Source of the DNA: Metellina segmentata
Lineage: Eukaryota > Arthropoda > Arachnida > Araneae > Tetragnathidae
NCBI GenBank assembly: GCA_947359465.1
Contig: OX375872.1
Coordinates: forward strand, 8,812,137-8,876,136
DNA: 64,000 bases
Direction of reading: 5' to 3'
In this document: piece by piece, positions 32,572 to 39,943 of the stretch
Position numbering within the stretch: position 1 is the stretch's first letter
Layout: every line of letters begins with the position of its first letter
Translations under genes and position numbers: made by a program
The notes under the pieces: model-generated
Told to the model about the DNA's origin: nothing
The model's input: the letters and a program-made list of their open reading frames with translations, nothing else
The model's database searches: none

Positions 32572-32917
32572 TGTGACGGTTCTTCCTTAGGCGGATTTCA
32601 TAATCCTCTGCCTTGTCGTCCTCCAAACAGTAACACTAGTCCATGAGCATATTTCAACCTTTATATACAACTCTTGACTATATTATTTACAGGATCATTC
32701 AGTCTATAATACATGGTCGGGAATAATCCCCTTAATAATAATCTCCAGCGCAAAACAACGCGTCCTCCTTCCTCGCTAGCCTTCCTGCAAGTCACTTTTC
32801 TTTTCAACCCTCTCCAAACGGGTTCCTTTTCAAAAACCCGAGGGGGGACCCCCGTGGAGTTCGATTCCGTGTCCATCGACCCTACCCAAACCTGGTGAGG
32901 TTACGGGGAACTTCACA
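32572..32917 (-). repeat. 3' LTR (346 bp)
   Basis: In element orientation starts TGTGAAGTTCCCCGTAACCT and ends AACCGTCACA. Preceded by the polypurine tract. Differs from the 5' LTR at only two sites, both near its element-3' end (GACGG/GACGT and TTCATAATCC/TTCACAATCC). The 71-codon frame inside occurs identically in both LTRs and is not considered a gene. Confidence 0.93.
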
Positions 32918-32927
32918 CCTCCCCTCC
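32918..32927 (-). other. Polypurine tract
   Basis: GGAGGGGAGG directly abuts the first base of the 3' LTR in element orientation, the expected position for second-strand priming. Confidence 0.85.
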
Positions 32928-33340
32928 GGTTTATAATTACGGGGCCACTTGGTCCCGAAATTGAAACCATAATAAAAAAACCACTATGACGAATGCCCCT
33001 CTCCTCGGGCAACGTCATCACTCCAAATCCAGATACCCAAAAGGTGTATTGATGTTTGTGTCCCCAAGTCGGCAAGTATGCCTGAAATGAGTCTCTCATG
33101 CATGAGCTCACAAACTTAAATTTTACAACTGTAATTATAATTTTTAAACTATCTTTGTACTTATGATAACAAAACAGTTTACTCAAAATACCAAAATGTT
33201 AACTCGTTTAATTAAAGAATACTAGCAATCCAAAACATACTCTTCAATACAGTTGTTTCATGTAAACAAAACCAATTAAATTGCTAATTTATGTGATCCA
33301 TTGATACAGTATAACATATCTTTAGTCATCATAAAATCAC

Positions 33341-35409
33341 TAGCATTGTTCTTCATACATTCTCGATAAAGCATCAGCATCGGCATTTAAAATACCTGGC
33401 TTATGATACATTATACCGAGGTAAAGCCAATGCCCACCTCTGAAGTCTGGCGTTTTGGGGTACACCTTCCGTTAGATATTTCAATGGATTATGGTCAGTG
33501 TGCAACAGTATACTCTGACCATACGTCCAAGTGTCAAATTTTCCCAAAGCCCGAATTACCGCATAAGCCTCTCTTTCAATTGCGCTCCATTTCATTTGCG
33601 CCGGTGTGAGCTTTTGGCTTGCGAATGTTATTGGTCTTGGGTAACCTTTCTCATCTCCCTGGACCTGACAGGCTCCTATTAGAGTGCCTATATAATAAGA
33701 GTGGCGACATACGGGAAACACTTTCTGATTGGCTTAGAGACCTTTTCTACCGCCCGAGGCGGTCTTTTCCCAGCTCCCGTAGACTTAACATTGGAACTTT
33801 TTGTGTGTTCGAGAAAAACGTGTGTATATTAAATTAAAAAGAAAATATAGCTTTTTCACGTTCCATTTCGTGTTCTAGAATGTTTATTTATTATTATTTT
33901 AGTGTTTTGTCAGTATAAATTTGAAGACTTTTTAAATAAATAGCTTTTTTTGAACAACATGGTGTTTCCCGCAATCTAAGTTAGCGCGTTGTGCAATCCA
34001 TCTCATCAATTACGCATGTAATTGAGCGTTTATATGATTCCTTTATACCGAATGTATCCATATTATAACAATCATATGCTTTTTGTTCTCCCTGAAATGA
34101 TATATTAATTCGCCCAGCAACCTTTTCTGAGACGATTCTGGTAGAAAAATGTCTGCCGCGCATGCGCATTGGGCCAAATTTGGTCCCTTGTCGCCACTCT
34201 TACTATATAGGCACTCTAGCTCCTATACCCGTTGCTGAGGCATCTGTGTGGATTTCAAACAGCTTATTTATATCCGGTGTAGACAGATACACCGCTTTAC
34301 ACAAAGCCTCTTTAAGCTTCTTAAACGCGTTGTCGGCGTCATAGGACCATGGTATATAATTGGGGACTGGTTTCTTCGTTAACTCTGTTAGGGGTTTCGC
34401 TATTTCCGCATAGCGTGGCACATACTCCCTGTAGTAGTTCATGAGCCCTAACACTGACAGTAGTGCCTTTTTCGTTTTAGGCACGTTCAACTGCTGTATT
34501 GTCGCTATTTTCCCAGGATCTGGACCATGTTTCCCTGTACCCACCACGTGGCCCAAATACCTTACTTCTGCCTTCGCGAAGGAACACTTTTCCAAATTAG
34601 CCGCGAAGTTCAAAGACCTTATGGTTTGGAGTACTGCTTTTAGATGAGTCAAGTGGTCCTCCCATGTCTGAGAATAAATGATTATGTCATCCATAAAGCT
34701 CTCTGCGTAATCTGAGTGTGCCCTCAATAGTGTGCTTGGTTCATAACCCTTTGGAAAGTGGCTGCGGCTCCTGAGAGTCCAAATGGCATGACCCTGCATT
34801 GGTATTGCCCTTTGGGTGACACAAAACTAGTTAGTTCTTTCGAACTCTCCTCTATCGGAATCTCCCAATATCCCTTTAAAAGGTAGGAATTTTGCACGTC
34901 CTGCCTTAAATCTTAATTCATCCGAATTTTGCATTGGGAACGCTACAATCTGACTCTCCGCATTGAGACCTCGATAGTCGCAACACAACCGTACAGTACC
35001 ATCCTTTTTTGCCACACAAACTATGGGGTAGGCAATCTCCGCTGTAGAAGGTTCAATGAGCCCCCTCATTATCAATCAACTCTTCAATCTGCTTTTCGAC
35101 CTGCGGTTTAATTGACTCGGGTATCCTATAAATGTGCGGTTGTTTCCGTTCTACGCCCGGTCTTAGTCGAATTGTGTGGGACCCTACATTGGCTTTCCTC
35201 ATCTCTCCATTGAATAGAGAACCAAACCCGTTCAACAAAGAACACAATTCTCGTTTTTGATGTCCTCGTAAGTGATCAAGTCCCTTGCTCATATTGAACG
35301 TCTCGATCTCTTGCCTGCCGTTTATAGGTTTATCAATAGGTGCGTGCAGGACTTCTCCGAATTCTTCGTCTGACTCATATATTACTCCCACTGCCCCGAT
35401 GGGTTGTAC
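33341..35409 (-). pseudogene. Reverse transcriptase-RNase H region (3' part of pol), interrupted
   Basis: Reverse transcriptase pieces in order: a connector with IRLRPGVERKQPHIYRIPES, then RGLIEPSTAEIAYPIVCVAK and DYRGLNAESQ, a shifted-frame core with LLKGYWEIPI and VMPFGLSG, the catalytic box FMDDIIIYS, and YLGHVVG plus the thumb (LLSVLGLMNYYREYVPRYAE). This is Ty3/gypsy type. RNase H follows: EIHTDASATGIGA, then after a nested insertion ITFASQKLTPAQMKWSAIER and LLHTDHNPLKYL. The C-terminus is HKPGILNADADALSRM and a stop near 33341. Frameshifts fall near 35065, 34880, 34770 and 33415. Nothing integrase-like follows, which fixes RNase H as the last domain. Confidence 0.88.
33680..34218. mobile_element. 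hAT-type MITE (539 bp), family N1, nested in RNase H
   Basis: Same termini as the element at 8702-9926 (TAGAGTGCCTATATAATAAG, inverted at the right). A perfect 8-bp duplication GCTCCTAT lies at 33672-33679 and 34219-34226. Removing the element and one duplication restores continuity of the RNase H reading frame, so it inserted after the LTR element. The outer regions match the longer copy; the middle ~250 bp do not. Confidence 0.92.
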
Positions 35410-38459: not shown

Positions 38460-39577
38460 TTTCCCCTTTTTACGCTAAATTATATCCAACTAATATAATA
38501 CTTAATACCAATAATAGTCTATCTTTAACTTGTTAGGTTAATCTTAAACAAACAAGTTATTTCTATCCTTGTATTATATTGCCAACTTATTCTAGTTTTA
38601 ATTCAGTTAATATTCTGTTGCACACTTCCATCTATATATATAGAATTTACCGTATAACGTCTACCCTTTTGTATTGTTTCTTATATATACTAGGTTCCGT
38701 AGACAGTTAAACCAATTACATATATATATTACAGTTACAACACTCTTGTATCCTTCCAAAGTATACCTATACTTTTATACACTACAATAAACAACTTAAG
38801 TTAGATATTTCACGATGCAATCCTAACCTAATAATATTTTACCCTATTAAAATACCTCTTAATCATTAAGTTTCACAAAACACAATATTCTAAACTTAAC
38901 TTTCAATAATATTCTTAAAACACTGACATGCATTTCTTGTGTAAACCCCCATGTTCAATTTTAAATAACAACAAAATTAAACGGGTATCTGGATTTACCT
39001 TTATCGGACTTCCCTTGGGATGGCGACGGGATCTTGTAGACTTCGTTGATTCGGCCTCGCTGATGCTCCGAAAGTAGGCTTCGCTGATGCTCCGAAAGTA
39101 GACTTCGCTGCTGCTCCGAAAGAAGGCTTCGCTGCTGCTCCGGGAGTAAGTTTGGCACTTTCACGGGCTTTCCAGGTACAAGCTTTTTTTTCTTCTATAC
39201 CGGCGTATCCAACTCAGACGATTCTCCGCAAATAGCTTGCAGTTACCTCTTGCAGACGGCTTCCCTCGATGCTGCTGCTCCAGGAATAGGCTTCGCTGCT
39301 GGCCCGGGAGTAGATTTGGCACTTTCACGGGCTTTCCAGGTACAAGCTTTTTTCTTCTATACCGGCGTATCCAACATCAGACGATTCCCCGCAAATAGCT
39401 TGCAGTTACCTTGCAGAAGACGGCTTCCCTCGATACTCTGAAGACATTTCTTCGGCGTTCACTTCCAATTATCAACTGTGGGGTCTCCCAAGTCTCCGTA
39501 ATACTTGAAGATTCCTTTCTCGCCGTCCAGTGTGGAATCCGGATCTGCTCAGACTTTTCTTTGGGATTCTGGACGAC
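38460..39577 (-). other. LTR-element leader with internal tandem repeats
   Basis: Untranslated region of about 1.1 kb between primer site and gag. At about 39046-39140 a 24-bp unit (CTTCGCTGCTGCTCCGAAAG core) is repeated four times. At 39125-39288 and 39289-39440 a ~160-bp segment is tandemly duplicated, including CACGGGCTTTCCAGGTACAA. The nearer 400 bp to gag are AT-rich. The 67-codon frame across the 24-bp units (QQRSLLSE repeats) is probably not translated. Confidence 0.75.
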
Positions 39578-39596
39578 AATCCATCCGAGTGAGCCA
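39578..39596 (-). other. Primer-binding site, tRNA-Ser-like
   Basis: One base after the 5' LTR the element reads TGGCTCACTCGGATGGATT. This matches about 15 of 19 positions of the complement of a typical tRNA-Ser 3' end (TGGCGCAGTCGGCAGGATT), recalled from general tRNA sequences. The starting TGG (CCA complement) and position are as expected; the tRNA identity is tentative. Confidence 0.6.
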
Positions 39597-39597
39597 C

Positions 39598-39943
39598 TGT
39601 GACGTTTCTTCCTTAGGCGGATTTCACAATCCTCTGCCTTGTCGTCCTCCAAACAGTAACACTAGTCCATGAGCATATTTCAACCTTTATATACAACTCT
39701 TGACTATATTATTTACAGGATCATTCAGTCTATAATACATGGTCGGGAATAATCCCCTTAATAATAATCTCCAGCGCAAAACAACGCGTCCTCCTTCCTC
39801 GCTAGCCTTCCTGCAAGTCACTTTTCTTTTCAACCCTCTCCAAACGGGTTCCTTTTCAAAAACCCGAGGGGGGACCCCCGTGGAGTTCGATTCCGTGTCC
39901 ATCGACCCTACCCAAACCTGGTGAGGTTACGGGGAACTTCACA
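39598..39943 (-). repeat. 5' LTR (346 bp)
   Basis: Same length and boundaries (TG...CA) as the 3' LTR, with two differences. An ATATAGTCAAGAGTTGTATA / TATAAAGGTTGAA region could supply a TATA-type promoter (TTATATA on the plus strand at about 39687-39693), followed in element orientation by GAAATATGCTC. Confidence 0.93.

What the first reader, a model, noticed from the sequence alone, without database searches (positions are those of the whole stretch)
32572..39943. Ty3/gypsy-type LTR element with integrase upstream of reverse transcriptase
In minus-strand order the domains are gag (coiled coil, CCHC), protease (DSGA), integrase (HHCC, DD35E, GPY/F-like), reverse transcriptase (FMDD box, gypsy-type motifs) and RNase H ending in a stop, with LTR following. 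Ty3/gypsy elements normally have integrase last. The integrase and reverse transcriptase frames are in the same register, separated by one TAA, so the order is native and not a rearrangement. The known exception with this order is the Gmr1 group, described mainly from deuterostomes. An apparently arthropod representative with LTRs, primer site and polypurine tract all defined would widen that group or be a convergent lineage.
Basis: partly seen in the sequence, partly recalled or inferred. Interest (0 to 1): 0.9.

Follow-up and report, generated by a model that had tools for sequence, protein, structure and literature searches.

The report
Spider jumping gene, integrase placed first
This is a copy-and-paste mobile element in what is probably a spider genome whose integrase is encoded before its reverse transcriptase, the reverse of its usual kin; the order is genuine, but the layout is already known from other animals, including crustaceans.

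Summary
Window 32572-39943 (minus strand) is an LTR retrotransposon with 346-bp LTRs (2 mismatches) and the order gag-CCHC-PR-IN-RT-RH. The order is native: 15 of 15 sister copies fetched from the same 1.67-Gb genome show it (15 of 39 listed), 11 of 15 in one open frame. The TAA between IN and RT is private to the window copy (0 of 15 sisters). The same models read RT before IN in canonical Gypsy families of the same genome, and yeast Ty3 has that order in the PDB, so this is not a method artefact. The 120 listed relatives, among them spiders, ticks and a scorpion, are IN-first; the nearest is 71% identical (Stegodyphus). RT trees put the IN-first elements in one clade (99/97). The IN tree supports the window's own clade (100/100) but does not settle whether a second IN-first family in this genome shares its origin. 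The novelty claim is weaker than stated: Gmr1-like IN-first Gypsy elements were reported from crustaceans in 2013 and from annelids later. This is a young, probably chelicerate lineage of a known unusual kind. No labelled deuterostome Gmr1 sequence could be fetched, so membership of the Gmr1 clade proper is untested.

The parts
39598..39943 (-). 5' LTR, 346 bp, TGTGA...TCACA
39579..39596 (-). putative primer binding site (TGG..., one base after the LTR); reads as the complement of a tRNA 3' end, but differs from the sisters' site
   Evidence: sequence; tRNA reading recalled, not tested
39053..39434 (-). tandem repeats (24-bp and 164-bp units) in the 5' untranslated region
37521..38459 (-). gag with a charged, coiled-coil-like N-terminus (by eye)
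   Evidence: no Pfam match to this ORF
37289..37339 (-). CCHC zinc knuckle
   Evidence: PF00098, E 6.9e-5
37082..37093 (-). protease active-site motif DSGA; the PR frame is broken in this copy
   Evidence: sequence; same motif in a sister copy
36339..36479 (-). integrase H2C2 zinc-binding domain
   Evidence: PF17921, E 8.1e-12
35413..36354 (-). integrase core (rve) and C-terminal module
   Evidence: PF00665, E 1.2e-14; relatives
35410..35412 (-). TAA between IN and RT, private to this copy (0 of 15 sister copies)
35056..35409 (-). IN-RT linker and RT N-terminus
34206..35075 (-). reverse transcriptase in broken pieces, and the first part of RNase H
   Evidence: PF00078 and PF17919
33680..34218 (.). 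539-bp inserted DNA element inside RH, 30-bp inverted ends, 8-bp duplication ATAGGAGC
33404..33733 (-). open piece holding the rest of RNase H (its upstream end lies in the insert)
   Evidence: PF17917, E 2e-25
32918..32927 (-). polypurine tract GGAGGGGAGG directly before the 3' LTR; identical in the 14 sister copies with both LTRs
32572..32917 (-). 3' LTR, 346 bp

Best explanation
It is a decayed copy of a young, multicopy Ty3/gypsy-type LTR retrotransposon of a chelicerate (probably a spider) whose pol is arranged PR-IN-RT-RH, as in the Gmr1 group and in Ty1/copia. Shown: the order, its conservation in sister copies, one gag-to-RH frame in most sisters examined, near-identical LTR pairs and 5-bp target duplications. 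Inferred: the element is translated as one Gag-Pol polyprotein, cut by its own protease, copied by RT from a tRNA primer and a polypurine tract, and inserted by its integrase. Also inferred: the order arose from an ancient shuffle inside a Ty3/gypsy pol and has since been inherited with IN and RT kept together.
For: 15 of 15 sister copies examined (of 39 listed non-self matches) show GAG, CCHC/PR, IN, RT, RH in this order. By motif, 11 of 15 have one open frame of 1,533-1,537 codons; 13 of 14 LTR pairs are flanked by perfect 5-bp duplications; 8 of 14 LTR pairs are 100% identical. All 120 listed relatives of an IN-RT-RH piece (120 of 1,128 matches) have IN wholly before RT by a trimmed IN model, with Pfam coordinates agreeing in 7 of 7 proteins checked; a query of that shape favours such proteins in the listing. 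Controls: of the same-genome RNase H loci L026-L055, 29 of 30 read RT then IN (mostly near-copies of one family), as do L057-L061 (L062 and L063 repeat L027 and L026), while a second family, L056, reads IN then RT; a tubeworm locus reads RT then IN. RT tree: IN-first elements on one side of a branch, 98/96 with LG+G4 and 99/97 with the mixture model. IN is of the gypsy/retroviral type by Pfam: Integrase_H2C2 and rve.
Against: The IN tree is weaker at depth: 82/70 for one IN-first clade with LG+G4. With the mixture model and extra rows the best tree needs two changes, and only 9% of bootstrap trees need one, though one clade is not rejected (AU p 0.18). Canonical rows are few and long-branched. 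No labelled deuterostome Gmr1 sequence was available. The host is inferred, not named. tRNA priming was not tested.
Confidence: 0.93

Rival explanations
1. A local rearrangement or assembly join in a dead copy made the order look unusual.
For: The window copy is broken in several places and carries a 539-bp insert.
Against: 15 of 15 sister copies examined, on ten other contigs and the window's own, have the order. 11 of 15 have it in one frame. Relatives in other species have it too.
Confidence: 0.01
2. IN-first order arose independently (convergently) in this chelicerate lineage and is not the Gmr1 lineage.
For: No labelled Gmr1 sequence could be placed. The mixture-model IN tree needs two changes in its best form. 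The protease piece read shows no TIHG motif, which one paper reports for Gmr-1 elements as data not shown (PMC2577118, passage).
Against: Next to the main clade on the IN tree lie more integrases, among them a mollusc and a turtle sequence whose own order is unknown. In four of these neighbours the RT N-terminus follows the integrase (P0038, P0045, P0106, P0113), and none of the 120 hits shows RT upstream of IN, though only 20 of them have more than 150 residues before the IN core. The RT tree supports one IN-first clade among the rows tested, and one clade is not rejected on the IN tree.
Confidence: 0.12
3. It is a Ty1/copia element or a copia-gypsy chimaera in which IN came from copia.
For: The domain order equals that of Ty1/copia. 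In a single-sequence PDB comparison the Ty3 integrase (E 3.8e-10) is only slightly ahead of chain 7z0h_W (E 8.4e-9), which I take from recall to be the Ty1 integrase.
Against: RT/RH match RVT_1, RT_RNaseH and RT_RNaseH_2, and IN matches Integrase_H2C2. A copia fragment in the same window gives RVT_2 instead (29807-30205). The best PDB match of the RT profile is Ty3 (E 9.2e-102), and the best PDB matches of the IN piece are PFV integrases (E 6e-17). IN and RT have the same nearest kin.
Confidence: 0.02

Closest known systems
Gmr1-like Ty3/gypsy elements (cod Gmr1; Goodwin and Poulter 2002, seen only as a citation and through later papers)
   Same: Ty3/gypsy-type domains with integrase upstream of RT (PMC2582038, PMC6238403, PMC8220671; passages)
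   Different: Host is probably a chelicerate; no labelled sequence to place it; the TIHG protease motif reported for Gmr-1 (PMC2577118, passage) is not seen in the piece read
Crustacean Gmr1-like elements GyRex4, Gychoro2, GyMaja1, GyLiva4, and GyRex5 (PMC3587641, passages)
   Same: Arthropod hosts, Gmr1-related
   Different: GyRex4 (RT/RH) and GyRex5 (IN) were non-overlapping pieces; the extent of the others was not seen. Here complete copies with LTRs, a polypurine tract and one frame are seen
Chelicerate database proteins, e.g. Stegodyphus mimosarum P0197 (71%), Amblyomma P0214, Centruroides P0246
   Same: Same order and same clade on both trees
   Different: Labels such as 'transposon 17.6' or 'uncharacterized protein' do not show the unusual order
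Ty3 and canonical Gypsy families of the same genome (L057, L063)
   Same: RT, RH and IN homologous
   Different: RT before IN

Membership tests
Gmr1-like (IN-first) Ty3/gypsy group | Ty3/gypsy-type RT, RNase H and integrase | tested here: met
   PF00078, PF17917, PF17919, PF17921, PF00665; Ty3 is the best PDB match of the RT profile
Gmr1-like (IN-first) Ty3/gypsy group | pol order PR-IN-RT-RH, native | tested here: met
   15 of 15 sister copies examined; IN wholly before RT in 120 of 120 listed relatives, with controls reading the other order
Gmr1-like (IN-first) Ty3/gypsy group | RT and IN cluster with labelled deuterostome Gmr1 elements | not testable with these tools
Gmr1-like (IN-first) Ty3/gypsy group | Protease TIHG motif (a reported trait, data not shown, not a definition) | tested here: not met
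   Motif absent from the PR stretch of the one sister copy read; report in PMC2577118 (passage)
Ty3/gypsy with canonical order | integrase after RNase H | tested here: not met
Ty1/copia | RVT_2-type reverse transcriptase | tested here: not met
   No RVT_2 among the matches; a copia fragment in the same window does match RVT_2
LTR retrotransposon in general | LTR pair with TG..CA ends, polypurine tract, target duplication | tested here: met
   (13 of 14 sister pairs with perfect 5-bp duplication; 4 of 5 bases in the window copy)
LTR retrotransposon in general | tRNA-primed minus-strand start | tested here: inconclusive
   A TGG-initial site follows the LTR; the tRNA pattern search of the genome did not complete

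The most novel reading that the evidence does not exclude
Integrase-first order evolved at least twice within Ty3/gypsy, and both lineages (the window's family and the deeply divergent L056 family) now live in the same chelicerate genome.
Probability: 0.1. Interest if true: 0.6.

Novelty: new member of a known kind. Interest (0 to 1): 0.32.

Why it matters
It indicates that the odd Gmr1-type pol order is a widespread and successful arrangement in chelicerates, with complete and recently inserted copies, and not a deuterostome oddity. The database names seen do not show the order, so it is easily overlooked. Two deeply separate IN-first families beside canonical Gypsy families in one genome make it possible to test how often pol order changes.

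Tried and rejected
Local rearrangement: rejected by sister copies. Copia origin: judged unlikely from domain types; no copia integrase was put on a tree. A native stop between IN and RT (for example a read-through design): rejected, since 0 of 15 sisters have it. The tubeworm locus L024 was at first taken as an IN-first relative because its tblastn match spans the query; the domain order showed that it is canonical RT-IN, and it became a control. My first IN model included linker columns, so the order was rechecked with a trimmed model. Four viral-contig scans gave no relatives. A genome search with the LTR, and a tRNA pattern search for the primer site, were sent repeatedly but did not complete, so total copy number and the primer tRNA remain open. 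The first trees had only two canonical rows and were uninformative about origins. LG+G4 then gave one IN-first clade on the IN tree, while the mixture model with more rows did not resolve it. Paper searches touching Gmr1 in chelicerates or arthropods listed no paper whose title or shown abstract concerned a chelicerate Gmr1 element; one search listed 20 of 25. A mite paper in those lists holds 'gmr1' only in a reference DOI. This covers only the open library.
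Full report
What is there. The finding's span, 32572-39943 on the minus strand, is an LTR retrotransposon with exact edges: two 346-bp LTRs with 2 mismatches and ends TGTGA...TCACA. A purine tract GGAGGGGAGG sits directly before the 3' LTR, and a TGG-initial candidate primer site lies one base after the 5' LTR. Pfam places a CCHC knuckle, Integrase_H2C2, rve, RVT_1 with RT_RNaseH_2, and RT_RNaseH in that order along the element. 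DSGA and FMDD are read from the sequence and frames. The window copy is dead: gag/PR, IN and RT frames are broken, a TAA stands between IN and RT, and a 539-bp DNA element with 30-bp inverted ends and an 8-bp duplication interrupts RH.

Is the order native? The window lies in an unnamed 1.67-Gb assembly. A search with the 3' part of the element listed 40 scored matches, 39 of them not the window itself; these are 94-96% identical and cover only the part of the query downstream of the insert. I fetched 15 of the 39. All 15 have gag, CCHC/PR, IN N-terminus, IN core, RT N-terminus, RT C-terminus and RH in this order, and 14 of 15 show both LTRs in the stretch. By motif, in 11 of 15 one open frame of 1,533-1,537 codons runs from gag to RH; the other 4 are broken. 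Of 14 LTR pairs, 8 are identical and 13 are flanked by perfect 5-bp duplications; the remaining pair, with a partial 5' LTR (79.3%), is not. The stop between IN and RT in the window is absent from 15 of 15 sisters. So the in-register TAA is a private lesion, and the native gag-pol is one frame.

Controls. The same models on other Gypsy loci of the same genome read RT then IN in 29 of the 30 loci L026-L055 (L040 holds RT pieces but no IN match; these loci look like near-copies of one family) and in L057-L061, and IN then RT in L056. L062 and L063 repeat L027 and L026. Yeast Ty3 in the PDB has RT at 675-1011 and IN at 1087-1448. A tubeworm contig (L024) reads RT then IN. So the pipeline can see both orders.

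Relatives. The integrase piece finds spider proteins first, at about 50% identity (165 matches, 120 listed). Single proteins of Trichonephila and of the tick Haemaphysalis read IN then RT. An IN-RT-RH piece of a sister copy finds full-length relatives: Stegodyphus mimosarum at 71%, and further down Araneus, Argiope, Parasteatoda, the ticks Amblyomma, Ornithodoros, Dermacentor, Ixodes and Rhipicephalus, and the scorpion Centruroides, beside many unnamed ones (1,128 matches, 120 listed). A query of that shape favours IN-RT proteins in the list. All 120 listed read IN then RT, by my first model and by a trimmed one; Pfam coordinates agree in 7 of 7 (six and one). Among the 120 integrase hits, none shows RT upstream of IN, although only 20 have more than 150 residues before the IN core, and 19 of the 22 with at least 80 residues after IN show RT there; 3 do not (P0047, P0095, P0114).

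Trees. I used 24 of the 120 proteins, one sister copy, L056 and up to 6 canonical rows. On the RT-RH tree the IN-first elements form one side of a branch with 98/96 (LG+G4, 26 against 6 rows) and 99/97 (mixture model, 24 against 4, 100% of 200 bootstrap trees). On the IN tree the window family and the other chelicerate and unnamed IN-first rows form a clade of 23 rows at 100/100. Whether L056 and the mollusc- and turtle-like integrases share one origin with them is open: LG+G4 gives 82/70 for one clade and a wider quick tree of 102 rows gives 84, but the mixture tree with extra rows needs two changes (9% of bootstraps with one), and one clade is not rejected (p 0.18). Canonical rows are few and long-branched, and the program warned of joined long branches, which limits this. 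Rows dropped: two canonical duplicates and three IN-first rows (nine added); two canonical duplicates and two IN-first rows.

How it works. From the anatomy (inferred): a single Gag-Pol polyprotein is made, the DSGA protease cuts it, RT copies RNA from a tRNA primer and the purine tract, and the H2C2/DDE integrase inserts the DNA with a 5-bp stagger. The sisters' primer site reads as the complement of a serine-tRNA 3' end, from recall only; the window copy's site differs. Since gag and pol share one frame, Gag excess over Pol, if needed, must come from something other than frameshifting.

What is known. Gmr1-type order is established: the passages seen state that integrase lies upstream of RT in this clade (PMC6238403, PMC8220671, PMC2582038). 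Four crustacean elements were called the first Gmr1-like elements in protostomes in 2013 (PMC3587641, passages). An annelid family followed (PMC8220671, passages), and Gmr1 is listed among clades present in several phyla (PMC8556966, passages). I found no paper on chelicerate members, which cover only the open library and were seen as listings. The element is therefore Gmr1-like in order and in kind. Clade membership in the strict sense is untested because no labelled Gmr1 sequence was at hand, and one reported Gmr-1 protease trait (TIHG, PMC2577118, passage) was not seen in the stretch read.

Verdict. The claim of widening a deuterostome group is outdated. This is a new member of a known unusual kind, with modest interest from its complete and young copies, its kin across spiders, ticks and a scorpion, and the presence of two IN-first families in one genome.

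Noticed in passing
L056 (G000:C1:8164800-8170800): A second, deeply divergent IN-first Gypsy family in the same genome; 13 of the 150 scored RNase H matches have an open frame of 1,477-1,478 codons, the length listed for this locus.
   Followed up: partly
window 33680-34218 and 8702-9926: 539-bp DNA element with 30-bp inverted ends and 8-bp target duplication inside RH; matching end pieces at 8702-8997 and 9840-9926 suggest a longer relative. The 8-bp duplication is hAT-like (recalled).
   Followed up: partly
window 39579-39596 against sister copies: The putative primer binding site of the window copy differs from that of the 14 sister copies where it was read, and its LTR is only 83-94% like theirs; it may be a subfamily with another primer tRNA.
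   Followed up: no
window 25632-26819 (-): Long open frame of a Tc1/mariner-type transposase (HTH_Tnp_Tc3_2, DDE_3).
   Followed up: partly
window 29807-30205 (-): Fragment of a Ty1/copia-type reverse transcriptase (RVT_2).
   Followed up: partly
window 22184-23334 (+): Two overlapping open frames, one with a weak DUF4371 match below its cut-off and one with no Pfam match, resembling a hAT-derived protein (resemblance recalled).
   Followed up: no
window 40687-41230: Inverted repeat with 152-nt arms and short related direct repeats just outside the element.
   Followed up: no
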